Assembly: GCA_015179125.1 (NCBI GenBank)
Contig: WHVA01000083.1
Coordinates: forward strand, 1-64,000
DNA: 64,000 bases
Source: Gautieria morchelliformis
Taxonomy: Eukaryota > Basidiomycota > Agaricomycetes > Gomphales > Gomphaceae
Direction of reading: 5' to 3'
The notes beneath the pieces were generated by a model that worked only from the letters and a program-made list of their open reading frames with translations, did no database searches and was not told the DNA's origin. The position numbers and the translations under genes were made by a program. Shown here one piece after another: positions 7,325 to 52,789 of this stretch; position 1 is the stretch's first letter, and every line of letters starts with the position of its first letter.

Positions 7325-8120
7325 AAGAGACCAATGGCGCATGCCGCCACCGGTTGCCCCAGTCAGCTAGGACATATGGTTCAGTGTTGAACCGCATCCA
7401 GAGCCGGCCACCCTCACAGGCGGCCACAAAACCCCAAGGAGATTTCTCGCAAGCTGGTCATATCAGAGGCTGACTCTGAAACGCAAGCCTAGAGCCTGAG
7501 GCCAAGCACTGGCAGCGGAAAGAAGCCGCCGCGGCGAGCCACCACACGCAGGCCCTTGAGCTGCTCCACCACGGGACCAGTGGAGTGTCCATCAACCGGT
7601 GTTGAACCATCCACCAAGACTGGGTATGGATGTCCCACTGATTTATCAGAGGGTTTGTTCCCGCAGTGATTAGATCAATCCATCCATAGTCATATAACTC
7701 ATAGATGTTATGAATGGGGCATGATATATTCAAATTTCGAGAGCATGTCAGATGAAAGAAACAAAGCACAAATAGCCCACGTGAATAAGGCTAGAGAATA
7801 GGCATGGTGCATACGAGAGAGTGAATAGCGTCTTTATCAAAGGGTAGGCGGTGAGACCACGGTAAGGTCAGCTGAGGTCATTATCGGCACAGAAACTATC
7901 ATCCGAACCCATGCCACCACCCGGGCCATGGCAAGTCTAGTGACGACGGGTCAAGCTACGAGACTGCGGCTGACTGAAATTTGCCGTTAGCACACAATGA
8001 TCAGACGCATTAATGTCATGAGAAATCTCATGCCTGGGTAGGGTCGAAGAGGAAGGGTAGGAATGACCGTGTGGTTCCTCTAAGCTGCTGCATAATGGTC
8101 AGCCGGCACTGTCGTGGAAA
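7325..8120. other. Downstream region of G1, repeated at other modules
   Basis: No gene is seen. From about 7650 the sequence repeats, with moderate divergence, at 16190-16686, 62700-63203 and, inverted, at 23174-23560. It is the 3' flank of each G copy. Landmarks are AACAAAGCACAAATAGCC and the ACCCGGGCCATGGCAA-type block. Confidence 0.6.
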
Positions 8121-9842
8121 TCATACTGGTATGTCGTACTCAACATCCGTATCTTCCTCACTATTCCCCGAATGTGGGACACAAGACAGCGGTGCCAGCA
8201 AAGACCTTTGACAGATATGAAAAGCAGAAAACGCCGCACAAGCTGGACATACGTTGTCTGTCTTTGCTGGTAGTTGGAGGGGCCTGTGTTCGCCTGACTC
8301 CCGCTGCTTGACGAATTGTTAAATGTTACACTACGGACACAGACTGACTAGCATGTACTGACGTGATGTGGTGTGACCTAGAACTTTGACCAACGTGTTG
8401 TCCACGGCTGTCCGTGGAAAAAGCGAAGATTGGCAAATGAACTTTGCCCCGATCCATCAATGCTTACCTGCTAGAACTACTACTGGATGCGACACGTCCG
8501 AGATTGGCTTCACTGTGTCCATAGCCATGGTGGGTAATAAATTCCATCTCAGAAAGTGACAGTAATACATCGTCGGTGAGATGAGTGCTTACCTTCGTGA
8601 ACTGTCGGGGCCAAACGCCTCCGTTTGATGACGAACATGACCAGGCTTCCAGGCATTCCCATCATAGGGCGCGTGCTTCAAAGAGGTCGCGTTACTTTCC
8701 GCCGTGTTGTGGCTGTGAATTGAAAGGCTGTCCAAGGGGAATCACAATGCGAACAGTTAGCTCGATATATGTATTGGATCTATGTTACTACCGTTCGCTG
8801 CTGGCCTGTGAAACTGACTCCACATCAAAGCTGGGATTACTACGCCCAGAGTCGGTCGAAGTTCGCTGCGTTGCAGCTGGTGTCGTATACCGAGTTACTC
8901 GTCCGGGAGGTGGAGGAAGGCCTGAAGATGTCGACGTTCGATCTGGCGGAGGAGAGGAGACGTGGAGAGAAAACGGGGAGTGTGAGTGAGGGGTGGCCGT
9001 GGATTTCCCCTTCGTTGGTGGCGATTCCTGGGCTAGCTTCTTCACTCTGCAAAATGCAATAAGTGTCAAGTATAGGAACTCGTGGAGTGGCCAGAGAAAA
9101 CAGTCATTCATTGGGAGATTAGCGCGTACATATCACTGTTGGACATGATAGGCCTATTGATGAGCATTTTTTTTCTCTCTTCGAGCTATCAACGCTTAGT
9201 CAATAAGCACAAATTGCCTCGCTAATGCGATTATTCACCTCTTTACCTTTAGCACAGTTAGCAATATGGAAATCAACAAGAAATGTAGACTTACGTTTCT
9301 GCTCTTGCGCTTCAAGCTATGCCATCATCAGTACTTAATGATCGAACGGTTCCCTATTCCGATCACTTCACCTGCTTCCCTTTACGATAGTCAAGATCTT
9401 ACTTAGTACCTGACAAGAAATATGTACTTACGTTTCATCTCTTCATCAGATCTCTCCTGGAGACGGCCGAGCTTATTCCATACATAGACCAAAAATGACA
9501 AAGGGTTAGCTCACCTTAAATTCCCGCTTGGTGTGGGCGATGTGATCCCGCACAGACTCGACAGTTCCAACATCGCTTGTCGCTTTCTTCCACCAATTCT
9601 TCTTCAATTCTTCCTCAATAATCTTGAGGTCTTTCTTCGCGCTTTGCAAGTGCTATCAAACGATTCAACCGATATCTGTGTTGGATAGCTTACTCATCTG
9701 CTTGGTCGCGTGTCGCCTGCGCAATCTCTGAGGATGTCGTCCCGGCTTTCTCCCGCTGGTCAACATATCCATTCAAATCCGCCATTTCTGCTGTGGCCAC
9801 TCGGTGTGTCTTCTTAGTTTCACCGTTGGGATTGAACTTCAT
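8121..9842 (-). CDS. G1, uncharacterised coiled-coil protein gene
   Basis: An intron-rich gene, read by comparison with its inverted copy G3. The start ATG is at 9842-9840 (MKFNPNGETKK) and the stop is at 8123-8121 after EEDTDVEYDIPV. Exon 1 is polar and helical (YVDQREKAGTTS). Exon 3 contains LGRLQERSDEEMK. Exon 4 is a 22-nt microexon (9295-9316, LEAQEQK), and exon 5 contains LEERKKMLINR. Then comes a Pro/Ser/Thr-rich exon, Ser/Gln-rich exons and an acidic C-terminus. Donors are mostly GTAAGY, including an intact GTAAGC near 8596 that is mutated in G3. As I read it, the exon 1/exon 2 junction is one base out of frame relative to G3, so this copy may be impaired. No domain of known function was recognised. 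It is transcribed divergently from K1. Confidence 0.6.
9295..9316 (-). other. 22-nt microexon of G1
   Basis: Bounded by ...GCATAG on the acceptor side and GTAAGT on the donor side (minus strand). The same 22-nt exon, with one difference, is at 21969-21990 in G3. Conservation of both splice sites in two inverted copies supports it. Confidence 0.65.
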
Positions 9843-10567
9843 GGCTCAAAGTGCAGAAGAGGCCGAACTGTGGGCGATTGCCAGTTTAGCTGCACTCGAG
9901 ACTTACGATCTGATCTTTTATGCTTGGAACCCGGGTGAGCATCCGACAGCCGCATTGCAGGTGCCACCTAGGGAGTCATTGAATCATATGTAACTCTATA
10001 GACAAGAACAATGAGAACAATGCACGCGGCAATGCAATAGCTGCAAATGCTTCTGGCATTTGACAGGTACCGCCTTCGACCAGATAACCGAGAATCATAG
10101 TTGCCCACGGCCTGAGCACGGGACCCCGGTGAAGTGGTAAGCGGGTGGCTCTCGCTTGTGAACATGGACTACTAATCCATTCTTGGTTTGCTTGCCATAC
10201 GCTTCCTTTACTATAAAGACACTAAGTGTATAGTCACAGCTTGTATATAGACTCAGTACGCTTGCGGCACTTCACTATACAACTTGTGTGCTTGATGCAC
10301 AAGGGGGTATTGTGGCTCACAATGATCAGTGGCGCGCCACAGATGTAGTTGATCGGGGAACCATCTATAATACATTCAATGTTGCAAATTTCAGTGATGA
10401 GCCACACTCGATCCATGGCCCGTGGCCCGGTGTATTGAGAAGCGCTGACATCGCGTCGATTATCCTTATCTGTCCACGAACCGGGCAATTGGCATGTGAT
10501 TTACGAGTCGACAATGGCAAAGCGCTGCATGTCCGCATGCGGAAACAAGACGGGAAGCTGAATATAT
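9843..10567. promoter_or_regulatory. Divergent G1/K1 intergenic region
   Basis: The shared upstream region of G1 (minus) and K1 (plus). It is repeated in inverted order between K3 and G3 (about 20711-21445). It includes the palindrome at 10329-10340 and decayed first-exon sequence of K1 from about 10490. A TATA-like CTATAAAG lies near 10212. Regulation from a common region is inferred from geometry only. Confidence 0.5.
10329..10340. promoter_or_regulatory. GTGGCGCGCCAC palindrome
   Basis: A perfect 12-bp palindrome upstream of K1. Identical 12-mers lie at 12736, 18088, 20905, 52415 and 52581, all in module non-coding DNA. A dimeric transcription-factor site is one explanation. Confidence 0.5.
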
Positions 10568-12080
10568 ATGTACGGGACCCCGTGGACCGCGTGTAACAAC
10601 CTTTTCGGTGTCCCAGTCGTTCCAATGCGCGAGCCTTATTCACTGCGCAACGACGAAGTAAGGTGGGTTGAGCTACAACCATACTTGCTATCCCGAGGGT
10701 ACCAGCTTCGCCCTAGGTACCAACCTGGCTGGGTTGGTTCCTGGAAGGCGACTAATGGCATGGCGTTATACCACGAAGACTCGCGTTCAGCCAGGGTACG
10801 TCCCACCAATGTCCCATCATTCCAGGTTAGCTAAACTAACTTACGCTAGTATATGAATGTGCTAGATGCAAGGCGGGTTGAGGATGATGTCAAAGTTATT
10901 CTCAAACGGGCCCCCACCACTACCCAAGAAATACCCATTGCTCGCTACCTTTCTTCGGAGGCGTTATTGTCAGATCCCCGTAATCGTTCTGTCCGTATAT
11001 TAGACGTGATACTCTTACCTGGAGACGATGAATGGGCTTTACTTGTCATGCCATACCTCAGATGGTTCGATGATCCCCATTTCCAATTTCGGGCAGAATG
11101 TGTAGAATTTTTCCGGCAAATGCTCCAGGTATGCTATAACCTTTTCTTTGGCAGAGCACTTGTTGAATGTTTCTGCAGGGACTAGAATTCATGCATGAAC
11201 ACAATGTGGCTCACAGGTGAATGCCTTACATATCCCATCTGATTTTTGATCTCATGCGCCCGTTTGCGCAGAGATGCATGTCATGGAAACATCGTGATGG
11301 ACTCGAGCAGACTGATCCCCAAAGGTTTTCATTTTACTTCCCAGTGGTCACATACTGGCGTCCCCGGATTCCCCTTTACCTATACCACTCGCTTAGCCGT
11401 GGCCCCAGTAGATTATTTCTTCATTGATTTTGGCCTCTCTACACGGTTCGCAAGCTTCGAAGACAGGCATCTAGTGACAGGCATGGCAGGCCAGAATAAA
11501 ACGGTGCCAGAACTGTCATATGACATTCCCTACGACCCATTCAAGGTGGACATTTACCACTTGGGAGGCGTTTTTGCTGAAATAGTCGAGGTGTGTAGCC
11601 CCTTATCGATATATAGTGTTTTTTCTTACAGACACAGGATTATCATCGTCTTGGCATATTCCAGCCCCTTGCGACTGCCATGATGCACCAAGATGCGTCG
11701 CAACGACCTGACGCATCTTCGGCCCTCGCTCAATTTGAACGCATCGCATCTGGACTCGGATCTCGGGAACTGAATTCGCGAGTGTTACTGTACAAGAAGT
11801 CGCGCTACGCACGGATGTGCAGGAGGATACGGGAACATCTGGCGTACTGGGTTTGTTTGACTTTTATCTCCCTCTTTTTTCCAAAACCTTACTGTTGTAT
11901 TACTCTCAGGATGGGGATGAAGAAGCAAAAAGATCTTTGCTTCGAATGCCGTTTCGGATCATAATTCGACGAAAGAACACAGAGTCAGAGAAAAGAAAGT
12001 CTTCCAAGGCTAGTGCTACAACATACGGCGACTCAGGGAGCAAGCCAGTGGTACCGTTCCGCGAGAAAACAATGCCATGA
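10568..12080 (+). CDS. K1, kinase-like protein
   Basis: A protein-kinase-fold gene read over six exons: ...-10795, 10850-11128, 11179-11216, 11272-11590, 11632-11850 and 11910-12080, with introns of 41-59 nt. Exon 1 has the family signature RGYQLRPRYQPGWVGSWK. Exon 2 has the candidate beta-3 lysine (DDVKVILKRA). The splice between exons 3 and 4 builds the catalytic loop HRDACHGN (HRD and Asn). Exon 4 carries the Mg-binding DFG (FFIDFGLS), VPEL for APE, and VDIYHLGGVF. Exon 5 has RPDASSAL (subdomain XI Arg). No glycine-rich loop is visible. The conserved stretch before MREPYSL is frameshifted relative to K3 and K5, so the true start is uncertain (10568 or 10625) and this copy may be damaged at its N-terminus. 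Substrate unknown; a fungus-specific kinase expansion (FunK1-like or other) is possible. Confidence 0.7.
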
Positions 12081-12239
12081 TGTTTGGTGGTAACGTCTCT
12101 TTCTGATTTTGTTGTTGTAGCCCTTGAAAACAAATTGATTGCAAATATGAGCATTCTCCAGCTCCACGTAAGTAGGCAGAGTCGCTAACGATGCCCTGGG
12201 CTTGCTTCCGATTGAGCCCCTACTAGCGGCTCGACCTAT

Positions 12240-12500
12240 AAGGGACATATGTAAGGTGCGATTGGTTGTGTGGCCTCGCTCTTGAAACGGACGAACGCCT
12301 GCTACGCAATACGTTACATCTTTCAGCTATTCTACTCTCATAAACTGAGCTGCTCGGATATCAGGATCAGTGGGCCCGGTTCGCCCAAAATGCCGGCTAT
12401 CTATGCATGCTCAAAATGTCTTTTCTTCTTGATCGTGTGGCGTGTACGAGATCGTGCCCGATGTAGGCTTTGACGTCCAATTAATGGATTCTTCAATAGC
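12240..12500 (+). pseudogene. H1, truncated H-gene remnant
   Basis: Follows K1 on the same strand. It contains the segment corresponding to LLGYQDQWARFAQNAGYLCM of H2 but lacks the first exon and is frame-broken (an in-frame TGA precedes that block). It ends at the conserved block around 12470-12500, also found at 13240-13270 and 18340-18370 in inverted orientation. Confidence 0.5.
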
Positions 12501-12956
12501 TCAGGTCAGGGAACTCCGATGTTCCGCTGGCTTAAAATGCTGCGGGTCCCGTGATAAGTAAGCGAAGGTGCTCATTGTTGAGATGGAATGGCACTTATAT
12601 TGTTATCAGTCGAATTAGGGAACAGATCGCGATAATCTCCCTCCAGACTCTCATGGATCAATGACAGCATTGAAATTGTAGCAACCATCAGCGTGTGACC
12701 CTTCTGGACACGGTCAGTACCACGGGGCGCGGAGTGTGGCGCGCCACAGAGTCCTCATGGCCACGGTAATTCCACCGCGGTGTTGTGGCGCGCTACAGGC
12801 GACGGTGTAGGTTCATTGAATGCGCACAGTCCAGCTATTGAGACGTCGCCGTCAAAAAGTAACAATTAATTATTAGAAAACAATGTCCATGCATACAGGA
12901 CGCAAGTTTGCAAGTTTTGGGTGGAAATTAAGGACTCGATCACTTACCGGTAGACA
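12500..12956. promoter_or_regulatory. Module spacer with two palindromes
   Basis: Non-coding. It is an inverted copy of 17900-18350 and related to 52385-52740. It carries the perfect palindrome at 12736-12747 and a one-mismatch copy at 12785-12796 (GTGGCGCGCTAC). It lies between the H1 remnant and an unrelated-strand K fragment, so it marks a rearrangement junction at about 12957. Confidence 0.5.
12736..12747. promoter_or_regulatory. GTGGCGCGCCAC palindrome
   Basis: A perfect copy, extended by one base each side to TGTGGCGCGCCACA. A near copy follows 49 bases later. Confidence 0.5.
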
Positions 12957-13206
12957 CTAGCTCGGAACCATGGGTCCTGCCAACCAACTCACTGGGCTTG
13001 AGCGCGAATCTTCATGCAAGATCGCAAGGCCTGGCATTATTTGCCTTCCAGGAACCCACCCAGCCAGGGCGGTACCTGTGGCGGAGCTGGTAGCCTCTGG
13101 AATGCAAATACGGTTGGTACTTAACCCACGGTAACTCGTCTGCTCGCAGAGCAAAAGGGTCATGCATCATGCATTCGAGCGACTCCCAAGAGGGTGATTT
13201 TCCCAC
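12957..13206 (-). pseudogene. K N-terminal exon fragment
   Basis: Encodes only the first kinase exon (HDPFALRADELPWVKYQPYL, then RPGWVGSWKANN) with a frameshift before HEDSRSS. It most resembles K4 (YLHSRGYQLR) rather than K1-K3. It is fused directly to the end of H2 on one side and to spacer DNA on the other, with no catalytic exons. A rearrangement product. Confidence 0.65.
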
Positions 13207-13236
13207 GCGGGGGTCTCTCGAGGCGGCTTGCCATAT

Positions 13237-13821
13237 TCAGAACTCCCGGGCTATTGAAGACTCCATTAATCGGACGTCAAAGCTTACATAGGGCACGAGC
13301 TCGTGCACGCCACACGATGTATCGATCTCCTCATTGAAATGCTTCATCGGTCTGGGTAAGCATGTTCCCACTGTACTTATGTGAAAAGAAGAACAAGAAA
13401 TTTTGAGCATGCATAGATAGCCGGCATTTTGGGCGAACCGAGCCCACTGGTCCTGATATCCGAGCAGCTCAGTTTGTGAGAGTAGGATTATTGCAAGGCG
13501 TAACGTATTGCGTAGCAGGCAGCGTGAGGACTCTGGAGTTAAGGCCTGAGGGCTCTGTATGACAGCCATGGGTCGGGGAGGTATACTGATGCTGCAGTCA
13601 CCATACATTGAATGAGGGAAATTTGGGGAGTGTGTGGAGCATGTGCACGGGTATTTAGTCTGACATGGTACTGTCGGGGAGGTCGGGATGTTAGTGAGCA
13701 TGAGTTTACCTTCCAGCCACAGCTCCCCCGCATCGGCGGAGCCTATGGCACGGTTAGAGATATATGAAGCGAGAAGACTCACTTCCTCCGGCACATCCTT
13801 TACAAGTGCAAAGCCACACAT
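13237..13821 (-). CDS. H2, uncharacterised protein gene
   Basis: Best preserved H copy, 163 bases downstream of K2 on the same strand. The open frame starts MCGFALVKDVPEEV. A GT...AG intron of 42 nt (GTAAACTC...CCGACAG, with a CTAAC branch-like motif) near 13670-13711 is conserved in H3. Removing it keeps the frame, but the unspliced frame is also open. Recognisable features are a Pro-rich middle and a helical block LRLAIILLSQTELLGYQDQ followed by WARFAQNAGYLCML. The C-terminus (FDVRLMESSI) is conserved in all copies. No known domain was recognised and there is no signal peptide. It may be coding or a degenerate segment of the duplicated module. Confidence 0.4.
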   Translation of the reverse strand: MCGFALVKDVPEEVSLLASYISNRAIGSADAGELWLEGKLMLTNIPTSPTVPCQTKYPCTCSTHSPNFPHSMYGDCSISIPPRPMAVIQSPQALTPESSRCLLRNTLRLAIILLSQTELLGYQDQWARFAQNAGYLCMLKISCSSFHISTVGTCLPRPMKHFNEEIDTSCGVHELVPYVSFDVRLMESSIAREF

Positions 13822-13983
13822 CCAATCGTACCTTGCATATGTCCTTTATACTCGATGATCGAGCTTATCGTAGGGGCTCGATAGGAATCAAGCCCGGGAT
13901 ATTCGTTGGCTCTGCCTACTTACGTGGAGATGGAGAATACTCATGTTTGCAATCAATCGTTTTCCAAGGATACAACAACAAGC

Positions 13984-15392
13984 TCAGACAGAGACGTTAC
14001 CACCAAACATCATGGCCCCTGTATTGTTTTCTGGTGAAGCGCCGTATGTTGTATCACTAGCCTTGGACCTGTTCCCTTTCTCCGACTGTTTGTTTGGCCG
14101 AATTAAGATCCAAGACGGCATATGAAGCGAAAATATTATGGCTCCTTCATTTCCTTCCTGAAGACAACATAGTCTAGCCGTTCCCGTATCCTCTTGCACG
14201 TTCGCGCGTAGAGCGACTTCTTGTAGAGTAGAATCCGGGATTTGAGTGCCCGAGATCCAAGTCTAGATGTGATGCGTTCAAACTGAGCCAGGGCCGAAGA
14301 TGCGTCAGGTCGTTGAGACGGATCTTGGTGCATCATGGCAGTCGCAAGGGGCTGGAATATACCAAGACCATGATAATTCTGTGTCTGTGAGCAAAGACAC
14401 TATATATCGATATGGGGATACACACCTCGACTAATTCTGCAAAAACGCCTCCCAAATGGTAAATGTCCACTTTGAAGGGGTCGTAGGGAATGTCATACGA
14501 CAGTTCTGGCACCGTTTTATTCCGGGCTGCCATCCCTGTCACCAGGCGCCTGTCTTCGAGGCTTGCAAACCGTGTAGAGAGGCCAAAATCAATGAAGAAA
14601 TAATCTACTGGGGCCACGGCTAAGCGGGTGGTATATGTAAATCCCTCGGCGGATGGGACGCCAGTGTGTGACCACTGGTCAGTAAAATGATACCCTTTGG
14701 GGATCAGTCTACTCGAGTCCATCACGATGTTTCCATGACATGCATCTCTACCCAAACGCGAGCATGAGATCAAAAATCAGATGGGGTATGCAATACATTC
14801 ACCTGTGGGCCACATTGTGTTCATGCATGAATTCTAGTCCCTGCAGAAATATTCAACAAGTGCTCACAAAGACGAGGTCATAGCATACCTGGAGCGATTG
14901 CCGGAAAAATTCTACACACTCTGCCCGAAATTGGAAATGGGGATCATCGAATCGTCTGAGGTATGGCATGACAAGTAAAGCCCATTCATCGTCTCCAGGT
15001 AAGAGTATCACGTCTAATATACGGACAGTGCGATTTCGGGGGTCTGACAATAACGCCTCTGAAGAAAGGTAGCGGGCGATAGGTAGTTCTTGGGTCGTCG
15101 TGGGGACGTGCTTGAGAATAACCTTAACATCATCCTCAACCCGCATCGCATCTATCACATTCATATACTGGCATAAAATCGTTTATCTAGCCTGGAATAG
15201 CGAGACATTGGTCGGACGCACCCTGGTTGAATGTGAGTCTTCGTATAAGAAAGGTTCGTTATTGTTGGCCTTCCAGGGACCAACCCAGCCAGGTTGGTAC
15301 CTAGGGCGGAGCTGGTACCCTCTGGACAGCAAGTATGGTTGTAGCTTAACCCACTTTACTTCGTCGTCGCGCAGTGAAAAGGGCTCGCGCAT
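13984..15392 (-). CDS. K2, kinase-like protein (impaired ends)
   Basis: The same six-exon plan as K1 on the minus strand. First exon MREPFSLRDDEVKWVKLQPY; first intron about 15168-15221. Second exon has DDVKVILKH and YLRRFDDPHFQF. Catalytic loop is HRDACHGN across a splice, DFG in FFIDFGLSTRFAS, and VDIYHLGGVFAELVE. The C-terminal lobe has RPDASSALAQFERI. The fifth intron has shrunk to a remnant without a donor, so the frame either ends soon after RERLDYVV or lacks the normal tail, and the last exon is shortened (ends near 13984). The stretch upstream of 15392 is broken by a stop after FVRDPVDRR. The kinase core is open; overall probably a decaying paralogue. Confidence 0.6.
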
Positions 15393-16686
15393 TTGAGGGA
15401 CTGGGACAGCTCGCAGATCAACGGCGGTCCACGGGGTCCCGCACGAAGACGAACCGGGCTACTTACATAAATGCGACATAAAGTTTCCTGGACTTCCGAC
15501 CACGGCGAGGGATGTCGCAGAGAAACGGAAGGAACGTACTTTACGATTCTCAATCGCCTGAAGCGATTCAGATGTACCGCCTCATCGCGAATACCGCCAG
15601 GAAGTACGCGCAACACTTGAGTAAATTCAGTCTCGTTATTCACATGTTGGTCTCAGTAGATCAATTGCCGGGTTCGTGGACAGACAAGCTAGGGTCGTGG
15701 TGATCTCGGGACTGAACGCGATGACAGTGTTGAAGCTATCACCAGCATGAGACTCTTCTTAGACACCGGACCACGGGCCATGGAGTGTGCCTCAGCACTG
15801 AATTTTCCACGGCATTGAATGTATTCTGGAGACAGTATGCATCAAGCTTTCGGACATATCTGTACATCAAGCAATAACGTGTTAAGTACTATAGCCCTTG
15901 CCAGTGAAGCGCCGCAAGCGTACTGGGTCTATTCAAGCTGTGACTACTTATTATACTCTTGACAAGAATTGGTTTGTAGTCCACGTTCACAATCAAGAGT
16001 CTGAAGCCGCTTCGCACTTGGTAGTAATGGTCCCCGGTTATCTATCAATATTTGGTCGAAGCTGTGTTCTGGACGATATATGTCAACCGCCAGAAGCATT
16101 TCGCAGGTGTTGTATTGCCGCGTGTATGGTTCTTGTTTATAGAGCTCAATTCGACAACTCCCTATATAGTAGCTAGTCCGGACGGCTCATACCCCTTGGA
16201 TCTCTAAGCAGGATCCAGAACTCGGCCGGGACCTTTCGTGACTTCCTGATTAGATGAATCCATAGTTGTAACTCATAGATGTTATGAATAGGACATATAT
16301 TCAAATTTCGAGAGCATGTTAGATCAAGAAACAAAGCACAAATAGCCCACGTGAATAAGACTAGAGAACAGGCATGGTGCATATGATAGTGAATAGGGTC
16401 TTTATCAAAGGGTTCGCGGTGAGACCACAGTAGGTCAGCTGAGGTCATTATCGGCACAGAAACTACCATCCGAACCCGTGCCACCACCCGGGCCATGGCA
16501 AGTCTAGTGACGACCGGTCAAGCTACCAGACTGCAGGTGACTGAAATTTGCAGTTAGCACACAATGATCAACGCATTGATGTCGTGAAAAATCTCATGCC
16601 TAGGTAGGGTCGTAGAGGAAGGGTAGGAATGACGGTATGGTTCCTCTGAGCTGCTGCATAATGGTCAGCTGGCACTGTCGTGGAAA
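15393..16686. other. K2 upstream and G2 downstream region
   Basis: No gene. 15400-15650 holds broken K first-exon sequence. 15700-16170 corresponds to the K3 upstream region, but a segment including the GTGGCGCGCCAC palindrome is missing. 16190-16686 is the 3' flank of G, in an orientation opposite to that expected for a divergent K/G pair. The join near 16170-16190 is therefore a rearrangement junction. Confidence 0.5.
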
Positions 16687-17638
16687 TCATACTGGTATGT
16701 CGTACTCATCATCCGTATCTTCCTCACTATGCTCCGAATGAGGGACAGCGCTGCTGGCTTGGGAAACTGACTCCCAGTCGATGCTGGGTGCACGCCTAGA
16801 TTCGGTTGAAGTTCGCGTTGCAGCTGATGTCGTATATTGCTTTGTTCTTCCAGGTGGCAGAGGGAGGCCAGAGGGGGAGGAGGTGGAAGCAGATTTCCCT
16901 ATGTTTCGTAGCTTGTCCTCGGCTATCCACTTCTCTCTGAAAACGAGAAAGTTACCGATCAGCGTATCCTAACTGAGCTTGTGTAGTGGCCAGAGAAAAC
17001 AGCCAATTAGGGAGGAGATGAATGCATACCTATCGCTGTGAGCCATGATCGGCCTACTGATGAGCGTTTGCTCTGCTTCACGCTATCGCATAGTCGTCAA
17101 TAATGCAAGAACTTTGCAGGTGCAGTTATAGTAATTTACCTTTCTCCCTTTGGGTAGCGAAACACAATCAGCTAGCTTGACAAGTAATCGATAAACTTAC
17201 TTTCCATCTCTTCATCAGACTTTTCCTGCAGACGGCCGAGGTTATTCCACTAAATCAATCAAAGAGACTAATGACGGGATAGCTCACTTGGAAGTCACGC
17301 TGGCTTTGGGAGATGCCCTCTCGTATACGATTAAGAGAAGATACAACGTCAGGAGATACGCTTTTCCACCTCTTCTTCTTCGCCTTTTCCTCTAAAGGCT
17401 TGAGCTGCCTCGTTACCCTTTGACATGCGAATGTGTGTCAAACATCCAGGGTAATACCAAGGGGATAGCTTACTCTTCAACGTATTCAAGAGCCATGTTT
17501 GCGATGTCTGGAGTTGTGGTCCCTTTGTCAGTCCGCTGCTGAACACCTTCCTTGTAATCATTCGCTGCCTCCCATATTGCTTGAGCGTCCTTGACAACAT
17601 TCTGGTTCGCGTGGGGAGGCCATGGCATGGTTCAACTT
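16687..17638 (-). CDS. G2, shortened coiled-coil protein gene
   Basis: A diverged G copy. Start at 17638 (MPWPPHANQNVVKDAQAIW). Exon 2 encodes VTRQLKPLEEKAKKKRWKSV and SQSQRDFQ; exon 3 has NLGRLQEKSDEEME. Next is REAEQTLISRPIMAHSD, which replaces two microexons of G1/G3. Then comes a shortened Pro/Ser/Thr exon running straight into SEHSEEDTDDEYDIPV and the stop at 16687-16689. The middle Ser/Gln exons of G1/G3 are absent, so this is an internally deleted but apparently open version. Introns keep GTAAGY/GTGAGC donors. Function unknown; charged helices suggest a coiled coil. Confidence 0.55.
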
Positions 17639-18399
17639 TGGTCTCAGGCTGGTGGCTGCAGATTCGGAATTGGCTGACTGGTCCGCGTCTTTTATACCTT
17701 GAACCGGACCAGTATCCGGATAACAATTCAAGTTGACAGCTGACAGCCAGGGCCTTCACGGTCAGCCCTGCAGAAAGGACCATGCACGCGACAATCTTGA
17801 GCATGCTTCTGGGATTTGCTCGGCTTTGAGGCATGAAGCTTCGACCTGATGATCGATAATTCGCTGCTAGAAGCGAACCGACCAGATTAAGCCACCGGCG
17901 TCTCAGGACCCGTGGTTCCGAGTGTCTACCGGTAAGTGTAAAGATCGAGTCATTAATTTCCACTCAAAACTTCAAACTTGCGTTCTGTATGCATAGCCAT
18001 TGTCCTCTAATAATTAATCGTTACTTTTCGATGGAGACGTCTCAATAGCTGGACTGTGCGCCAATGAACCCACACAGTCACCTAGCTGTGGCGCGCCACA
18101 CTCCGTGCCCCCGTGGTCCTGACCGCGCCCAGAAGCCTCGGACACATGCTGATTGATGGTTGCTAGAATTTCAATGCTGTCATTGAGCCATGAGAGTCTG
18201 GAGGGAGATTATCTCGATCTGTTCCCCAATTCGACTTATAACAATATAAGTGCCATTCCATCTCAACAATGAGCACCTTCGCTTACTTATCACGGGACCC
18301 GCAGCATTTTTAGCCAGCGGAACATCGGAGTTCCCAGACCTGGGCTATTGAACACTCCATTAATCGGACGTCAAAGCCTACATCGGGCACGATCTCGTA
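17639..18399. promoter_or_regulatory. G2 upstream / H3 downstream spacer
   Basis: Non-coding module spacer. Its left part (17640-17770) recurs at 50967-51078 and its right part recurs inverted at 12500-12956 and at 52385-52740. It contains the perfect palindrome at 18088-18099 and a TTTTATACC-type AT block near 17690 about 55 bases upstream of the G2 start. Confidence 0.45.
18088..18099. promoter_or_regulatory. GTGGCGCGCCAC palindrome
   Basis: A perfect copy, about 450 bases upstream of the G2 start. Confidence 0.5.
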
Positions 18400-18926
18400 C
18401 ACGCCACACGAAGCATCGATCTCCTCCTTGGAATGCCTCATCGGTGTGGGGACATATTCCCACTGTACTTAGGTGACAAGAAGAACAAGACATTTTGAGC
18501 ATGCACAGATAGCCGGCATGTTGGGCGAACCGGGCCCACTGATCCTGATATCCGAGCGGCTCAGTTTGTGAGAGTAAAATAGCTGAAAGACGTAACGTAT
18601 TGCGTAACAGGCAGAATTCGGGTTCTTGAGCAGGGTGTTAGGGCCTGAAGCCTGAGGTGTCTGTGCGACAGCCATGGATCGAGGAGGTATACTGAGGCTG
18701 CAGCCAACAAACATTGAGAGAGGGAGCTTTTAGAGCGTGTGGAGCATAGGCGCGGGTATTTAGTCGGAAATGGTACTATCGAGGAGGTCGGGATGTTAGT
18801 GAGATTAAATTTACCTTCCAGCCACAGTCCGCGGTCCGCATCGGCTGAGCCTATGGCACGGTCGGAGATGTATAGAGCAAGGGAGCGAGAAGACTCGGAA
18901 CATTTCCTCCGGCTCGTCCGTTTCAA
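18400..18926 (-). pseudogene. H3, frame-broken H copy
   Basis: Downstream of K3, same strand. The first exon reads MKRTSRRKCSESSRSLALYI then SDRAIGSADADRGLWLE; the intron (GTAAATTTAATC...CTCGATAG) matches H2. After it the similarity to H2 switches between frames, ending with LGYQDQWARF-type sequence out of frame, so this copy is probably non-functional. The last block (MESSI-equivalent) is at about 18340-18370. Confidence 0.45.
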
Positions 18927-19123
18927 GAGGCCACAACCAATCGCACCTTACATATACATATGTCCCTTATACATCGAGCCGCTCGTAGGGGCTCAATCGG
19001 AAGCAAGCCCAGGACACCGCTAGCGACTCTGCCTACTTACGTGGAGATAGAGAATGCTCACGTTTGCAATCAAATATTTTCAAAGATTACAACAACAAAA
19101 TCAGGAGACGTTACCACCAAACC

Positions 19124-20710
19124 TCATGGCCCCTGCATTGTTTTCTCTTGGAACGGAAGCACTGGCTTGCTCCCTGGGGCGCTGTATGTTGTGGCACTAG
19201 TCTTGGATGTGTTTCCTTTCTCCGACTGATTTTTTGCTCGACTTATGATCCAAGACGGCATATGAAGCGAGAATACTATTGCTCCTTCATCTCCTTCCTA
19301 AAGCCAACAGTATGAGTTTGGACAAAGGGGAGAGATAAATATCTAGCAAACCGAGCACACTAGCCGTTCCCGTATCCTCTTGCACGTTCGCGCGTACAGC
19401 GACTTCTTGTAGAGTAGAATTCGCGAATTGAGTTCCCGTGATCCCAGTCTAGATGCGATGCATTCAAACTGAGCCAGGGCCGAAGATGCGCCAGGCCGTT
19501 GGGACGGATCTTGGTGCATCATGGCAGTCGCAAGGGGCTGGAATATACCAAGACCATGATAATTCTGTGTCTGTGAGAGAAGAACACTATATATCGATAA
19601 GGGGCTACATACCTCGATTAATTCAGCGAAAACGCCTCCCAAGTGGTAAATGTCCACCTTGAATGGGTCGTAGGGAATGTCATATGACAGTTCTGGTACC
19701 GTTTTATTCTGGCCCGCCATGCCTGTCACTAGTTGCCTGTCTTCGAAGCTTGCGAACCGTGTAGAGAGGCCAAAATCAATGAAGAAATAATCTACTGGGG
19801 CCACGGCTAAGCGAGTGGTATATGTAAAGGGGGATGGGATGCCAGTATGTGTCCACTGGAGAGTAAAATGATACCCTTTGGGGATCAGTCTACTCGAGTC
19901 CATCACGATGTTTCCATGACATGCATCTCTACCCAAACGCGAGGATGAGCTCACAGATCAGATGGGATATGTAAAGCATTCACCTGTGGGCCACATTGTG
20001 TTCATGCATGAATTCTAGTCCCTGCAGAAACATTCAACGAGGGCTCTGCCAAAGAAGAGGTTAAAGAATACCTGAAGCGATTGCCGGAAAAATTCTACAC
20101 ATTCTGCCCGAAATTGGAAATGGGGATCATCGAATCGTCGGAGGTATGGCATGACCAACAAGGCCCATTCATCGTCTCCAGGTAAGGGTATCACATCTAA
20201 TATACGGACAGCGCGGTTTCGGGGATCTGACAATAAAGCCTCTGAAGAAAGGTAGCGAGCAATGGGTATTTCTTGGGTAGTAGTGGGGGCCCGTTTGAGA
20301 ATAACTTTGACATCATCCTCAACCCGCCTTGCATCTAGCACATTCATATACTAGCGTAAGTTAGTTTAGCTAACCTGGAATGGTGAGACATTGGTCGGAC
20401 GCACCCTGGCTGAACGCGAGTCTTCGTGGTATAACGGAACGCCATTATTCGCCTTCCAGGAACCAACCCAGCCAGGTTGGTACCTAGGGCGAAGCTGGTA
20501 CCCTCTGGACAGCAAGTATGGTTGTAGCTCAACCCACCGTACTTCGTCGTCGCGCAGCTCATAGGGCTCGGGCCTCATGAACGACTGGGACGCCGAAAAG
20601 GTTGCCACACGCCACATGGGGTCCACGGGGTCCCGTACATATATATTCGGCTCCCTAAGTTTCCGCATGCGGACATCCAGCGCTTTGCCCGTATTTGACT
20701 CGTAAATCAC
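19124..20710 (-). CDS. K3, kinase-like protein
   Basis: The longest open K copy. The frame upstream of the first intron is continuous: SNTGKALDVRMRK, YVRDPVDPMWRV, ELRDDEVRWVELQPYLLSRG, then RPRYQPGWVGSWK. The following exons give DDVKVILKRAPTT, YLRRFDDPHFQF, the spliced HRDACHGN loop, FFIDFGLSTRFAS, VDIYHLGGVFAELIE, RPGASSALAQFE, and a last exon EGDEGAIVFSLHMPSW ending at 19124. Intron 5 is about 50 nt (GTTTGC...GCTTTAG). No in-frame break was seen, but the initiator ATG was not found with certainty: the frame is open from 20710 and a first exon may lie further right. No glycine-rich loop is visible. Divergent from G3. Confidence 0.7.
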
Positions 20711-21445
20711 ATGCCATCATGTTTAGACTCATTGCCCGGTGCGTGGACAGATAAGCTAGGATCGCGATAATCGTAGCGATGTCAGCGCTGAACTTCTCAA
20801 TACAGCGGGCCACGGGCCATGGATCGAGTGTGGCTCATCACTCAGATTTCCAAGAGATTGAATGTATTATAGATGGTTCCCTGATCAACTTATCGCTGAC
20901 GTTTGTGGCGCGCCACTGATCATTGTGAGCCACACGGCTCACACCCCTCTTATTCTGGAGACATGCATCAAGCACATAAGTTGTATAGCCCTTGAAGTGC
21001 CGCAAGCGTACTGAGTCTATACAAATTGTGACTATACACTTAGTGTCTTCATAGTAAAGGCACGCAACCCAAGAATGGGTTAACAGTCCATGTTCACAAG
21101 CGAGAGCCAGCCGCTTCGCACTTCAACTGACAGCGGCGAGGCGCCGGGACACCGTGCTCAGGCCGTGGGCAACTATGATTCCCGGTTACCTGGTCGAAGG
21201 CGGTACATGTCAGATGCCAGAAGCATTCGCAGCTATTGTATTGCCGCGTGCATTGTTCTCATTGTTCTTGTGAGTCTATAGAGCTTACATATGATTCAAT
21301 GACTCCCTAGGTGGCACCTGCAATGCGGCTACAGGATGCTCACCCGGGTTCCAAGCATAAAAGATCAGATCGTAAGTCTCGAGTGCAGCTAAACTGGAAA
21401 GTGCCCACAGTTCGACACCCCAGCCTCTCCTCTCTTTGAGCCATA
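20711..21445. promoter_or_regulatory. Divergent K3/G3 intergenic region
   Basis: An inverted counterpart of 9843-10567. It contains the perfect palindrome at 20905-20916 and the CAATCATTGTGAGCC-like neighbourhood conserved at K1. It serves as the 5' region of both K3 (minus) and G3 (plus). Confidence 0.5.
20905..20916. promoter_or_regulatory. GTGGCGCGCCAC palindrome
   Basis: A perfect copy between K3 and G3, at the position equivalent to the copy at 10329 upstream of K1. Confidence 0.5.
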
Positions 21446-23173
21446 ATGTTCAATCGCAACCGTGAAACTAAGGAGATACTCCGAGCGGCCACAGCAGAAA
21501 TGGAGGCTTTGGATGGCTATGTTGACGAGCGGGAAAAAGCAGGGACAACATCTTTGGAGATTGTGGAGACCGCGCGCGGCCGGTCAGGGGAGTAAGCTAT
21601 CCAACACAGAAATGGGTTGAGTAATCTGACAGCCACTTGCAAAGGGTGAAGAAATACCTCAAGCCTATCGAGGAAGAATTGAAGAAGAGGACATGGAGGA
21701 AAGCGACCACCGACGTTGGAACTGTCGAAGTTTTGCGGGAGCACATCGCCAAAACCAAGCGTGATTTTAAGGTGAGCGATCCCTTTGTCATTTTTGATCT
21801 ATGTGTGGAATAAGCTCGGCCGTCTCCAGGACGGATCTGATGATGAGATGAAACGTAAGTTTATATTTCTTGGTACTTGACAAGAAGTTGACTATCGTAA
21901 AGGGAAGGAGGTGAAGTGATTGGAATAGTGAACCACCGTTCCATCATTAAGTACTGACGATGGGATAGCTTGAAGCGCAAAAGCAGAAACGTAAGTCCAC
22001 ATTTCTTGTCGATTTCCATACTGCTGACTGTGCCGAAGGTAAAGAGGTAACAATCGCATTAGCGAGGCAACTTGTGCTTATTGACTAAGCGTTGATAGCT
22101 CGAAGAGAGAAAAAAAATGCTCATCAATAGGCCTATCATGGCCAACAGTGATATGTACGCGTTAATCTCCCAATGATTGACAGTCGTCTTCTCTGGGCAC
22201 TCCACTAGTTCCTATACTTGACACTTAATTTGCATTTTGCAGAGTGAAGAAGCTAGCCCAGGAATCGCCACCAACGAAGGGGAAATCCACGACCACCTCT
22301 CACTCACACTCCCCCTTTTCTCTCCAGGTCTCCTCTCCCCCGCCAGATCGAACGTCAACATCCTCAGGCCTTCCTCCACCACCTGGACGAGTAACTCGGT
22401 ATACGACACCAGCTGCAACGCAGCGAACTTCGACCGAATCTGGGCGTAGTAATCCCAGCTTTGATGTGGAGTCAGTTTCACAGGCCAGCAGCGAACGGTA
22501 GTAACATAGATCCAATACATATATCGAGCTAACTGTTGGCATTGTGATTCCCCTTGGACAGCCTTTCAATTCACAGCCGCAACACGGCGGAGAGTAATGC
22601 GACCTCTTTGAAACACGCGCCCTATGATGATAATGCCAGGAAGCCTGGTCATGTTCGTCATCAAACGGAGGCGTTTGGCCCCGACAGTTCACGAAGATAA
22701 GCACTCATCTCACCGACGATGTATTACACTTTCTGAGATGGAATTTATTGCCCACTATGGCTATGGTCACAGTGAAGCCAATCTCGGGCGTGTCGCATCC
22801 AGTAGTGGTTCTAGGAGGTAAGCATTGATGGATCCCGGGGGCAAAGTTCGTTTGCCAATCTTCACCTGTTCCAGGGACAGCCGTGGACAGCATGTCGGTC
22901 AAATTTCTAGGTCACACCACGGCGTCACGTCAGTAATGGTAGTCAGTCTGTGTCCGTAGCGTAACATTTAACAATTCGTCAAGCAGCGGTAGTCAGGCGC
23001 ACGCAGGTCCTTCAAACTACCAGCAAGGCCACAGTCTACAGACAACGTATGTCCAGCTCCTGCGGCGTCTTCTGCTTCTTACTCATATCTGTCAAAGGTT
23101 TTCGCTAGAACCGCTGTCTCGTGTCACGCATTCGGGGCATAGTGAGGAAGATACGGATGATGAGTACGAATAA
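21446..23173 (+). CDS. G3, coiled-coil protein gene with microexons
   Basis: The most readable G copy. Exons as read: 21446-21591 (MFNRNRETKEILRAATAEME), 21633-21771 (LKPIEEELKKRTWRKATTDV and TKRDFK), 21815-21854 (LGRLQDGSDDEMK), 21969-21990 (22 nt, LEAQKQK), 22099-22154 (LEERKKMLINRPIMANSD), 22243-22497 (KKLAQESPPTKGKS, Pro/Ser/Thr-rich), 22562-about 22698 (HSRNTAESNATSLKHAP), then Ser/Gln-rich exons (GPSNYQQGHS) and the acidic end EEDTDDEYE with the stop at 23171-23173. One donor near 22699 reads ATAAGC where G1 has GTAAGC, so splicing there may fail. Highly charged helices suggest a coiled coil; no catalytic motif, signal peptide or membrane segment was seen. Function unknown; paired head-to-head with the kinase K3. 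Confidence 0.6.
21969..21990 (+). other. 22-nt microexon of G3
   Basis: Acceptor GATAG before it and donor GTAAGT after it; encodes LEAQKQK plus one base. The counterpart in G1 is at 9295-9316. Confidence 0.65.
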
Positions 23174-23746
23174 CAGCGTGATTTCCACGAAAGGCCGTGC
23201 CGGCTGACCATTATGCTCAGATGAAAGGCCCGGGTGGTGGCACGGGTTCGGATGATAATTCTGTGCCGATAGTGACCTCAACTGCTCTACCGTGCGCTCA
23301 CCCGAATAGCTACCACTTGAGAAAGACCCTATTCCCTCTCTCTTATGCACCATGCCTATTCTCTAGCCTGATTCCCGTTGGCTATTTGTGTTTTGTCTCT
23401 TGGATCTAACATGCCCTCGAAATTTGAATATATGTCCCAGTGATAACATATATGGTTCTGACTATAAATTGACCTAATCAATGACAAGAAGTCACGAAAG
23501 GTCCTGAGTTCTCGATCCTGTTAGAGATCCAAGGGGTATGAACCGGTGACTTCGTTACCAGATGATGTACGCGTGCCTGGTCACCATCTATCTAATTTTC
23601 TCCCCTTGTCCGAGTCTGCATGTAGATGTATTTGCTCGCCGTCTCAGGCTGCATATGACACAGCGCGCCACACACACGCCAACTCCCTCGTCACATCCGC
23701 GCGGGCAAACACAGGACCACCTAGCACACGCCAGCAGTGAAGCGAA
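23174..23746. other. G3 3' flank up to the LINE-B insertion
   Basis: 23174-23560 is the inverted copy of the G 3' flank at 7650-8120 and 16190-16686. 23560-23746 has no counterpart that I recognise and no gene. Confidence 0.5.
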
Positions 23747-47753: not shown

Positions 47754-49301
47754 TCATGGCCTCTGTATTATTTCCACATGGAGATCTAGTGCTGACTTGC
47801 TTCCTGAGTCGCCGGATGTCGTAGCACTCGTCTTGCATGTGCCTCCTATCACCGACTTGGTATTCCTTCGCCGAAGTATGATCTGGGACAGGACTTGAGA
47901 CAAACGCCCTATTACAGTGTCGTCCCCTTCCTGAGAGTAAAACAACGGTAAGAAATATTAGAAGTGGAGAGGTAAGGATTAAACAAACCGAGTGCTCCAA
48001 TCCTTTCCGTATCTTCCTGCACGTCCGCGCGTAGAGCGACTTCTCGTAGAGTAAGACCCTCGATTTGAGTGCCTGAGATCCTAGCGTAGACACAATGGTT
48101 TCGAACTGAACCAGAGCTGATGATGCATCAGGCCGTTGCGCCGGATTTCGGCGCATCATAGCAGTCACAAGAGGCTGGAATACAACAAGACCATGATAGT
48201 TCTGTGTCTGTGATTGAAGATACTATATATCGATAAGCCATTGGCCACACACCTCGACTAATTCTTCAAAAACGCCTCCTAAATGGTAAATGTCCACTTT
48301 GAAAGGGTCGTATGGGACTTCATATGACAATTCTGGTACAGTTTTATTCTGGCCTGCCATGCCTGTCACTAGGTGCCTCTCTTCAAAGCTTGCGAAGTGA
48401 GAAGACAGCCCAAAATCAACGAAGAAATAATCCACTGGACCCACGGCTAGACGGGTTGTATGTGTAATCCTTCTGATGGGGGCGCCATCATGCGCCGATT
48501 GTAAAAAAAAATAGAAACCTCCTGGTATCAGCCTGCTCGAGTCCATCATGATATTCCCATGACACGCATCCCTGAAAAACTTGTTGGCAAGAACTCAAAT
48601 ATGAGACGAGGTAGGTTACCTGTGGGCTACGTTGTGTTCATGCATGAACTCTAGTCCCTGCAGAAAATTGGAAAACCCAACAAAAAAATTCTGGTACGAA
48701 ATGCTGACTTACCTGGAGCGATTGCCGGAAAAATTCTACGCATTCCACTCGAAACTGGAAATGGGGATGATCGAATTGCCTTAGGTACGGCATGACCAGC
48801 AGGGCCCACTCGTCATCGTCAGGAAGAGGTATCACATCTAATAAACGAACAGTCCGATTTCTGGGATCTGACAGGAGCGCCTCAGACGATAGATAGCGAG
48901 CGATGGGCAATTCTTTGGTGGTGGTGGGAACTCTCTTCAGAGTAACTTTGATATCATCCTCGATGCGCCTAGCATCGATCACGTTCATATGCTAGTAGAT
49001 CACTTTTTTCAACAAAGAATCACAGTCAGAATTTAAACTAACTCACTGGGCTTGAGTACGAATCTTCATGGTAGAACGGAAGGCCATTATTTGCCTTCCA
49101 GGAACCCACCCAGCCAGGGCGGTACCTGGGGCGGAGCTGGTAGCCTCTGGAATGCAAATACGGTTGGTACTTCACCCACAGTAACTCGTCCTTTCGCAGA
49201 GAAAAAGGCTCATGCATTCGCGCGACTGGGCCTGAGGCCTGAGGTTTCACAGGGGGTACACGGGGTCTGAATCCGACCGTCACGGTCCGCAGGTCACGCA
49301 C
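47754..49301 (-). CDS. K4, kinase-like protein (diverged copy)
   Basis: The same six-exon architecture on the minus strand, but clearly the most diverged full copy. N-terminal exon: VRDLRTVTVGFRPRVPPVKP, MHEPFSLRKDELLWVKYQPY, RPGWVGSWKANNG. Intron 1 is about 55 nt with GTGAGT/CTACTAG sites. Later exons: DDIKVTLKRVPTT (candidate lysine), YLRQFDHPHFQF, spliced HRDACHGNIMMD, FFVDFGLSSHFAS (DFG), VDIYHLGGVFEELVE, RPDASSALVQFE, and a final exon EGDDTVIGRLSQ ending at 47754. No break was seen in this span. The first Met that fits the family is at 49217; the frame is open to 49301 and earlier exons may have been displaced by LINE-D, inserted about 90 bases upstream. Possibly functional if transcription still reaches it. 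Confidence 0.7.
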
Positions 49302-50798: not shown

Positions 50799-51078
50799 CG
50801 TCCCATCGGACGTCGCTCGCACCCAACGCCAAGTGGCGGCCATCGGTGCACCGTCAAGTCCCGCGAGGAACCTCGTCACCCCTCGCTCCTCCTTTGAGGT
50901 GAGCGCTCTCACTCGCCATCGCATGGCCCGGGAAGAACATGGAACACCGTTCGACTATGGTCACTAGTGGCTGCAGGTGCGGAATTGGTGAGCTGGTCCC
51001 AGTCTTTATACCTCGAACCGGACCAGCATCCGGGTAGCATTTCAAGTTGACAAGTGTCGGGGCGGAGTCATTGACGGT
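50799..51078. other. Flank between LINE-D and the hAT-like element
   Basis: 50799-50966 is unassigned. 50967-51078 repeats the region just upstream of G2 (17645-17770), showing that another module copy was here. No G coding exon is recognised. Confidence 0.45.
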
Positions 51079-51372
51079 TAGTGATGGGCATGGCCTGGCC
51101 CAGGCCGCGGGCCAAGCCAGGCCGAGCCGCCAATAGGCCGGGCCAAGCCAGGCCAAAGCCGAGCCAGGAAGCCGTGGCCTGGCAAGCGCCTAAATACAAG
51201 ATCTTCGGTCACAAAAAAGGATATGTCTGCTCTGATACTGGCAGCGAATATAATTTTTTTCGATGATAGCGTAGTTACAGTCTGCTTATCCCTTACTCTT
51301 TACCCCACTTGCTATACCCCGCCCTCGCATCGCTGATTCTGATAGCGAAATTGAGGCAGTTAACGGCGCCGA

Positions 51373-51423
51373 CAGTCACAAGCACCAGACGTATGGTGAA
51401 ACCCAGTGCGGCGTTGCGTGATC
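51373..51423. repeat. 51-bp direct repeat, copy 1
   Basis: Begins CAGTCACAAGCACC and ends GCGTTGCGTGATC; repeated with a few changes at 51825-51875, enclosing about 400 bases of very GC-rich DNA. Confidence 0.8.
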
Positions 51424-51444
51424 GTTAGGATCCCCTAACGATCA
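51419..51444. repeat. Perfect inverted repeat, 11-bp arms
   Basis: TGATCGTTAGG, a 4-base centre ATCC, then CCTAACGATCA. It sits at the end of the first direct repeat inside the hAT-like element; it may be a footprint or the end of another small element. Confidence 0.8.
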
Positions 51445-51824
51445 AAAATGTCCCGCTCATGCTGCTTCTCCTCCGTGCGCGCGACACCTCGAGCTTCTTC
51501 CTAATCGCTGCGCGCTCCCTCTCGCGCTCCTCGCCAGTCTTCTCGTTCTCGCCTTCGCCGCGCTCCCCGTCCTCCTCGTCCGCGCTGGATGTGTCGATGT
51601 CCATGCCCGCGCCTGCAGCGCCCAGCTAGCCGCGCGTCGCCGCGCTCCACAGTGCTAATCCGCACGCGCTTCATCTGCCTGCCATCCGCGTCCCCACGCT
51701 CGGCCTCTGCGACCGGAGCAGCTCGTGGCCCGTCCCCGGCGCCCCGCCGCACTCCGTGCGTCGCGGATGCGCACTGTCCAGACCGTGGGGTTGTGCTCTG
51801 CGCGATGGGCCGGGGCATGCGTCG

Positions 51825-51875
51825 CAGTCACAAGCACCGGACATGTGGTGAAACCCAGTGCGGCGTTGCGTGATC
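51825..51875. repeat. 51-bp direct repeat, copy 2
   Basis: The partner of 51373-51423; here it is followed by CCTAAATGTGACCC rather than by the palindrome. Confidence 0.8.
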
Positions 51876-52414
51876 CCTAAATGTGACCCGGCAACGCATC
51901 AAGAAGACAGGTGCAGGAGACAAAACAGCCCCGATGATATCATCGACAACGAGGAGGAGCTTGAATACCTTTTGGTACGCTACATACAATATAAGAATGA
52001 TATCTTGTCTACAAGGCTATTCCCCCACCAACAGGCCATGGCCCAAGCCAAGGCCAAGCCGGAGCCGAGCCAGGCCAAGTGCTAATGGCCTGGCTCAGGG
52101 TTTTAGCAAGCCAAAGCCGGGGCGAGCCGGGCCAAAGCCACGGCTTTCAGGCCAAGCCAGGCCATGCCCATCACTATCAATAATGGTGCAGTCACTCATG
52201 CAGCCCTGCAGAAAGGAGGATGCACGTGACAACCTCGAGCATGCTTCTTCTATTTATTCTGCCTTGGAGCGTGAAGCTTTGACCTGATAATCGATAATTG
52301 CTACAAGCGAACTGACCAGTAAGCTTGTGCCACCGGCGTCTCACCCGAGGTTCCGAGTCAGCAGGGGGTTTAGTAAGTGATTTGAGCCATTTACAGTAAT
52401 TCCACCGCTGTGTT

Positions 52415-52426
52415 GTGGCGCGCCAC
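52415..52426. promoter_or_regulatory. GTGGCGCGCCAC palindrome
   Basis: Perfect copy, in the context TTGTGGCGCGCCACAGG, as at 12785. Confidence 0.5.
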
Positions 52427-52580
52427 AGGTGAGGGTGAGAGCCTCCTCTTAAGTGTGGGTTCGCTGAATGCACACAGTCCTACTATAGAGATGTAACCAT
52501 TAATTATTAGTGGACAATGGGCATCGGCCGCCCAGGTTTGGCGAGTTTTGAGGGGAATTACTCTGGCCCATGAGAACTCA

Positions 52581-52592
52581 GTGGCGCGCCAC
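52581..52592. promoter_or_regulatory. GTGGCGCGCCAC palindrome
   Basis: Perfect copy, 166 bases after the previous one. Confidence 0.5.
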
Positions 52593-52789
52593 GCTCCATG
52601 GTCCCGCAGTACTGGCCGTGCCCAGAAGGGACCCACGCTCATGTTGAGCCATGAGACTCTGGAGGGAGATTATCTGTTCCCCAATTCAATTGATAACAAT
52701 AGAAATGGCATTTCATCTAGACAGTGAATTACTTCGCTTACTTATCAGCGGACCCGCAGCACTCCAAGTGAGCGGTACAGCTGAATTCC

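What the first reader, a model, noticed from the sequence alone, without database searches (positions are those of the whole stretch)
8121..23173. Amplified K-G-H gene module with a large inverted duplication
A kinase-like gene, a divergently transcribed coiled-coil gene and a third gene recur as a unit. G1-K1-H1 (8.1-12.5 kb) and H3-K3-G3 (18.35-23.2 kb) are inverted copies around a third, rearranged set (K2, H2, G2). More copies are at 47.7-49.3, 50.97-52.97 and 60.3-63.26 kb. Repeated co-amplification of the same partners suggests a functional link or a selfish block. I know of no described system of this composition.
Basis: partly seen in the sequence, partly recalled or inferred. Interest (0 to 1): 0.75.

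Follow-up and report, generated by a model that had tools for sequence, protein, structure and literature searches.

The report
Tandem-amplified kinase and orphan-gene block
A truffle-like forest fungus carries a repeatedly duplicated block holding a kinase gene, of which many copies stay usable, and an orphan gene that mostly decays; this looks like ordinary local gene duplication rather than a new kind of system.

Summary
The window is contig C926 of Gautieria morchelliformis (Gomphales). The repeats are real: 8090-12294 and 23216-18914 are inverted copies (87% over 4354 columns), with a third set between. K is an active-looking protein kinase of an Agaricomycete family; 9 of the 10 copies I projected are open and under purifying selection (pooled omega 0.26), though other K places are partial. 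G is a real, spliced, annotated 12-exon gene: a helical N-terminal part of low constraint and a disordered tail, partly under purifying selection (exons 7-8, 0.29). My searches found G only in Gautieria. Most of 12 projected G copies are damaged. H shows no clear coding signal; it begins with the kinase's last exon. Divergent G-K is not the rule: elsewhere G, K and spacer run head to tail (5-6 kb period), and the three divergent pairs group together, as if from one inversion. Of 21 K places 10 lie within 2.1 kb of a G; of 20 G places 8 have no K that close. Copies share no common end. Best reading: tandem and segmental duplication in a transposon-rich region, with K the selected gene and G partly hitchhiking. 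A kinase-partner role for G remains possible. Low to moderate interest.

The parts
10625..11856 (+). K1, kinase gene, open over the five exons of K3 (start by my projection)
14139..15392 (-). K2, kinase gene = annotated protein P0002 (350 aa, 5 exons)
19346..20578 (-). K3, kinase gene = annotated protein P0001 (342 aa, 5 exons)
47983..49220 (-). K4, diverged kinase copy (dN 0.13-0.15, dS 0.74-0.99 against the main clade), open over the K3 exons, no G within 13 kb; start approximate
60315..61758 (-). K5, kinase gene = annotated protein P0003 (395 aa, 6 exons)
13027..13164 (-). fragment of a K first exon, left between H1 and H2
8031..9840 (-). G1, orphan gene; divergent from K1; annotated only in part (P0123, 7954-9111); two splice acceptors of the family changed
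16557..17628 (-). G2 = annotated P0127 (232 aa); lacks exons 7-10; same strand as K2
21446..23173 (+). G3, divergent from K3; exon 7 donor lost, exon 11 frame shifted; none of the annotated proteins that I placed maps here
63114..63281 (-). 3' end of a G copy (G5), same strand as K5
11900..12980 (+). H1: K last-exon homologue plus spacer, no clear coding signal
13237..14169 (-). H2: same; holds a 194-aa ORF
17904..19309 (-). H3: same
50964..52918 (-). H-type spacer remnant split by a dispersed element (about 51.05-52.19 kb)
8090..12294 (+). left arm of the inverted duplication (partner 18914-23216)
18914..23216 (-). right arm of the inverted duplication

Best explanation
A local gene cluster grown by ordinary duplication. 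The unit, about 5-6 kb, is G, then K, then a non-coding spacer (H), head to tail on one strand. Unequal exchange multiplied it (inferred from the period); one inversion made G and K divergent, and that form was copied as whole blocks to G1-K1, G3-K3 and contig C36 (inferred from the trees). Transposable elements broke up the array. K encodes a kinase with a complete catalytic apparatus apart from the glycine-rich loop, and many copies are kept open by selection: this is shown. That extra K dose or variety is what is selected, and that G (helical bundle plus disordered Ser-rich tail) is mainly carried along, is inferred. If G has a role, I think it most likely acts as a K substrate or adaptor through its conserved tail; nothing here tests that.
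For: Period: K3 to K2 start 5.2 kb; G to G start 5.9 kb on C656 and 5.7 kb on C774, with K between on the same strand. Block identity and agreeing K and G subtrees for the divergent block. K: 9 of 10 projected copies open over the K3 exons, pooled omega 0.26 (bootstrap 0.21-0.31) for those 9; catalytic Lys in 32 of 34, and Glu, HRD His and Asp, catalytic Asn and DFG Asp in 34 of 34 aligned proteins; kinase fold at pLDDT 93 with PDB kinases as matches. G: of 12 copies projected, only the C774 35-kb copy has all 12 exons without visible damage. No end common to the copies.
Against: K also decays: of 21 K places, 9 are shown open, one (C36) is frameshifted, and the other 11 are fragments, partial or not projected. 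Exons 7-8 of the G tail are under purifying selection (7 copies, omega 0.29, bootstrap 0.17-0.52), so G is not simply junk. G and K lie together on four contigs. I had no expression data. C656, C774 and C36 may in part be alternative haplotypes, so copy numbers may be inflated.
Confidence: 0.65

Rival explanations
1. A functional two-gene module: G is the dedicated partner or substrate of K, and selection keeps them together.
For: Ten of 21 K places have a G within 2.1 kb and 12 of 20 G places a K; part of the G tail is conserved; whole-block duplications kept the pair.
Against: Most projected G copies are damaged while 9 of 10 projected K copies are open; G was not found outside Gautieria, K was; 8 of 20 G places have no K within 2.1 kb; 11 of 21 K places, fragments included, have no G that close, among them the open K4 and C926-92 kb copies.
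Confidence: 0.2
2. A selfish or mobile block that carries K and G as cargo.
For: Dispersed solo G copies on C1, C237 and C915; a transposon-rich region; a dispersed repeat that holds about 250 bp of G sequence. G1's similarity to most other copies starts within a narrow stretch, 7677-7760.
Against: That stretch is no common end: other copies match one another some 300-600 bp beyond it, and the C36 and C926-80 kb copies match G1 further out. Head-to-tail period. The ORFs of the 8-23 kb stretch are at most 204 aa; two of them were run against Pfam and gave no mobile-element match, but the units were not scanned systematically.
Confidence: 0.08
3. Partly an assembly effect: unmerged haplotypes of a dikaryon make one array look like several.
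For: The C36 copy is 95-100% identical over most pieces of 7.7-12.3 kb (82-89% in the G N-terminal and G-K spacer pieces) and 97% over window 6.6-8.3 kb; small contigs C656 and C774 carry arrays.
Against: The window alone holds K1-K5 and G1-G3, with K dS 0.21-0.99 among K1-K5, too diverged for alleles of one gene; window 2.0-3.6 kb gave no match on C36 among the 40 scored of 289 candidates.
Confidence: 0.07

Closest known systems
Agaricomycete kinase-like family (PF00069, unnamed in what I read; e.g. Hysterangium, Sphaerobolus, Piloderma, Mycena proteins)
   Same: K belongs here: up to 54% identity to proteins of other genera, near full-length alignment, same catalytic residues, same absence of GxGxxG
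   Different: In Gautieria one subclade is multiplied in a unit with G
FunK1 fungal kinases (PF17667)
   Same: Expanded fungal kinases; matches also occur elsewhere in this genome
   Different: K does not reach the PF17667 cut-off (10.9 bits against 24.1)
FslK, the TK-related fungal kinases (PMC3937382, passages read)
   Same: Agaricomycete expansion
   Different: K matches Pkinase far better than PK_Tyr_Ser-Thr; no FslK sequence was compared
Tandem, lineage-specific gene arrays in fungi (general knowledge, recalled)
   Same: Local duplication of a functional gene together with orphan neighbours
   Different: No difference in mechanism that I can show

Membership tests
Eukaryotic protein kinase (PF00069) | Domain match above the curated cut-off | tested here: met
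   37.7-40.5 bits against cut-off 31.7 for 4 of 4 K proteins
Eukaryotic protein kinase (PF00069) | Catalytic Lys, Glu, HRD Asp, Asn and DFG Asp | tested here: met
   Lys 32 of 34, the others 34 of 34; DFG Phe and Gly 30 of 34 each
Eukaryotic protein kinase (PF00069) | Glycine-rich loop GxGxxG | tested here: not met
   0 of 34; all sampled members of the family lack it, so it is a trait of the family
FunK1 (PF17667) | Match above the curated cut-off | tested here: not met
   Best 10.9 bits against 24.1; 1 of 4 K proteins listed at all at E <= 10
FslK | Closer to tyrosine kinases than to other kinases | tested here: inconclusive
   PF00069 E 2e-9 against PF07714 E 0.0067 for P0001; FslK's own tree not rebuilt
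MLKL/HeLo-like four-helix domain (recalled lead for G) | Sequence or fold match | tested here: inconclusive
Mobile block | Fixed ends shared by copies | tested here: not met
   G1 diverges from most copies at 7677-7760, but those copies match each other further out, and C36 and C926-80 kb match G1 further out
Mobile block | Target-site duplications at unit ends | not tested
   No fixed ends to test

The most novel reading that the evidence does not exclude
G and K form a lineage-specific signalling or self-recognition pair in Gautieria: K phosphorylates the conserved part of the disordered tail of G, while the loosely constrained helical domain of G varies between copies and gives the array its specificity.
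Probability: 0.1. Interest if true: 0.6.

Novelty: new member of a known kind. Interest (0 to 1): 0.3.

Why it matters
It is a clear case of a functional kinase and an apparently taxon-restricted orphan gene multiplied together, with the two genes meeting different fates. It could serve to study how orphan genes spread by hitchhiking, and whether mushroom-fungus kinase expansions are driven by dose. As a new system it has little support.

Tried and rejected
H as a third gene: of 180 scored windows over six frames, the lowest omega was 0.44. K exon windows in the right frame reached 0.10-0.27, but one K window on the wrong strand scored 0.18, so the scan is not fully specific. Of 292 pairwise indels in H 90 were multiples of three; over the whole K region, introns included, 97 of 239, so that contrast is weak.

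Positive selection on the G N-terminus: exon 1 omega 1.24 (bootstrap 0.73-2.30) and 1.39 without bootstrap, so not shown. Other G exons: exon 2 0.65, exon 6 0.49, exon 9 0.52, exon 10 0.31, exon 11 0.97; so the tail is not constrained throughout. Annotated-model pairs of G gave 0.34-0.99, partly from poor models. The row labelled E7+E8+E10 was computed from exons 7 and 8 only.

RNA families and tRNAs: none reported in the window. Papers: nine searches listed no paper whose title or abstract start describes this array; (Gautieria with 'kinase-like domain') found 0 papers. I saw search listings, passages of PMC7550596 and passages of PMC3937382, nothing else.

Rows dropped: truncated K copy C656_15 left out; frameshifted C36_256 left out of omega; K places on C36 (146 and 187 kb), C656 (13.8 and 25.9 kb), C774 (19 kb), C577, C230, C659 and C1 and the 13.0-kb fragment were never projected; damaged G copies left out of each omega group as listed; P0007, P0122 and P0125 did not map exactly. 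The K and G places were typed and include fragments; distant K-like loci (identity under 50%), the four G fragments inside a dispersed repeat (C232, C804, C823, C588) and a few matches under 60 bases were not put in the lists.

Full report
Origin. The window is G000:C926:1-64000, an assembly of 122 Mb in 1113 contigs. The kinase read from 19346-20578 equals a protein filed under Gautieria morchelliformis on a 293,166-base contig, the length of C926. The species is in Gomphales, Agaricomycetes.

The repeats. Self-BLAST confirms the inverted pair 8090-12294 / 23216-18914 (87.1%, 4354 columns) and extends it weakly to 7696/23457 and 12979/17904. K2-H2-G2 lie between. K4 (47.98-49.2 kb) and K5 (60.3-61.8 kb) are further kinase copies. 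The block at 50.97-52.97 kb is an H-type spacer split by an element with many relatives in the genome (40 of 273 candidates scored). Its ends carry a short inverted repeat, visible.

K. Ten copies (five in the window, two more on C926, one each on C36, C656 and C774) were projected on the K3 exons. Nine are open; the C36 copy is frameshifted in exon 1. A further truncated copy (C656) was dropped, and ten other K places, mostly partial, were not projected; so of 21 K places nine are shown open. Pairwise dN/dS has median 0.21 over 36 pairs; pooled omega is 0.26 (0.21-0.31). The family gave 349 proteins with E <= 0.001 among 1882 candidates, 120 listed; the named ones are mushroom-forming and related fungi as far as I recognise the names. 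Over 34 aligned members the catalytic residues are kept and GxGxxG is absent. AlphaFold2 gives pLDDT 93, and Foldseek finds CASK, PAK, CaMKII and CDK2 chains among its best rows at TM-scores near 0.5. K is not FunK1.

G. Two searches of about 5.8 billion proteins returned 7 proteins (1953 candidates, E <= 1) and 9 proteins (7990 candidates, a capped list, E <= 10), all from Gautieria. The method needs shared short words and similar length, so distant relatives can be missed. The complete model P0121 (367 aa, C774) has 12 exons. Projecting these on 12 copies shows the exon frames and most GT and AG sites kept across copies, so G is, or was, a real gene. Damage is common: a shared stop in exon 7 on C1, C237 and C656-18 kb; frame changes in C656-4, C656-10 and C774-41; exons 7-10 missing in G2; donor loss and frameshift in G3; 3' end lost in C926-84. 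G1 and its C36 relative are near complete, with two changed acceptors and partial annotated models. Constraint differs along the protein: N-terminal exons 0.65-1.24 with bootstrap ranges that include 1; tail exons 7-8 at 0.29 (0.17-0.52); exon 9 at 0.52 and exon 11 at 0.97.

H. After K's fifth exon and a 56-58-base intron, two annotated kinases (P0003, P0004) have a sixth coding exon of 162-174 bases that lies in H. The rest has no clear conserved frame.

Arrangement. On C656 the order along one strand is G (3.1 kb), K (6.0), G (9.0), truncated K (15.6), G (18.1), with K fragments at 13.8-14.4 kb; on C774, read on the minus strand, G (42.7), K (39.7), G (37.0); in the window, read on the minus strand, K3, H3, G2, K2, H2. 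Divergent pairs are G1/K1, G3/K3 and C36, which group together in both trees (K: K1 with C36 0.999, joined with K3 and the C926-92 kb copy at 0.799; G: G1 with C36 0.999, joined with G3 and C926-80 kb at 1.000). So divergent transcription looks derived, most simply by one inversion; G1's similarity to the same-strand copies stops at 7677-7760, which may mark the breakpoint. Elsewhere the two trees do not clearly match: K5 pairs with the C774 K (1.000), while G5 and the G upstream of that K do not pair, with low support. One pair (C926 84/87 kb) is convergent.

Together or apart. Of 21 K places, fragments included, 10 have a G within 2.1 kb. Of 20 G places, fragments included, 12 have a K that close; the eight others are C1 (3), C237 (2), C915, C926-80 kb and an N-terminal piece on C774 (typed). 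More distant K-like loci of this genome and four G fragments inside a dispersed repeat were not counted. These counts are not independent events, because blocks were copied whole.

Conclusion. The simplest account is tandem and segmental duplication in a transposon-rich region, with K maintained in many copies and G mostly decaying. A K-G functional link is open and testable.

Noticed in passing
window 29253-30239 and 36958-37943: 987-bp repeats, 99% alike but inverted, flank a region with Ty3/gypsy-type RT, RNase H, integrase and chromodomain ORFs; LTRs should be direct. 40 full-length places were scored of 367 candidates, and contig C431 has another inverted pair about 5-6 kb apart. Real or an assembly effect is open.
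   Followed up: partly
L039, L040, L041, L044 (contigs C232, C804, C823, C588): A dispersed repeat, up to 3.5 kb of it 96-99% alike between copies, carries about 250 bp of G exon 2 and what follows it: a gene fragment captured by a repeat, or the reverse.
   Followed up: partly
window about 51053-52187: Dispersed element of about 1.1 kb with short inverted ends (TAGTGATGGGC...), with many relatives in the genome; looks hAT-like from recall.
   Followed up: partly
contig C1, about 101 kb and 179 kb: Two G copies with equal scores against P0121, suggesting a recent duplication within C1.
   Followed up: no
contig C915, 68.9-75.1 kb: A G copy split by about 5.7 kb of other sequence.
   Followed up: no
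window 38024-40790 and 56183-58956: Two repeats 72.5% alike with A-rich 3' ends, next to or overlapping LINE-type ORFs (RT, endonuclease, RNase H at 41.7-43.9 and 55.6-58.7 kb); a piece of the same 3' end lies at 6921-7099.
   Followed up: no
window 3623-4905 and 5277-6547: Direct duplication, 78% alike, left of the block; not identified.
   Followed up: no
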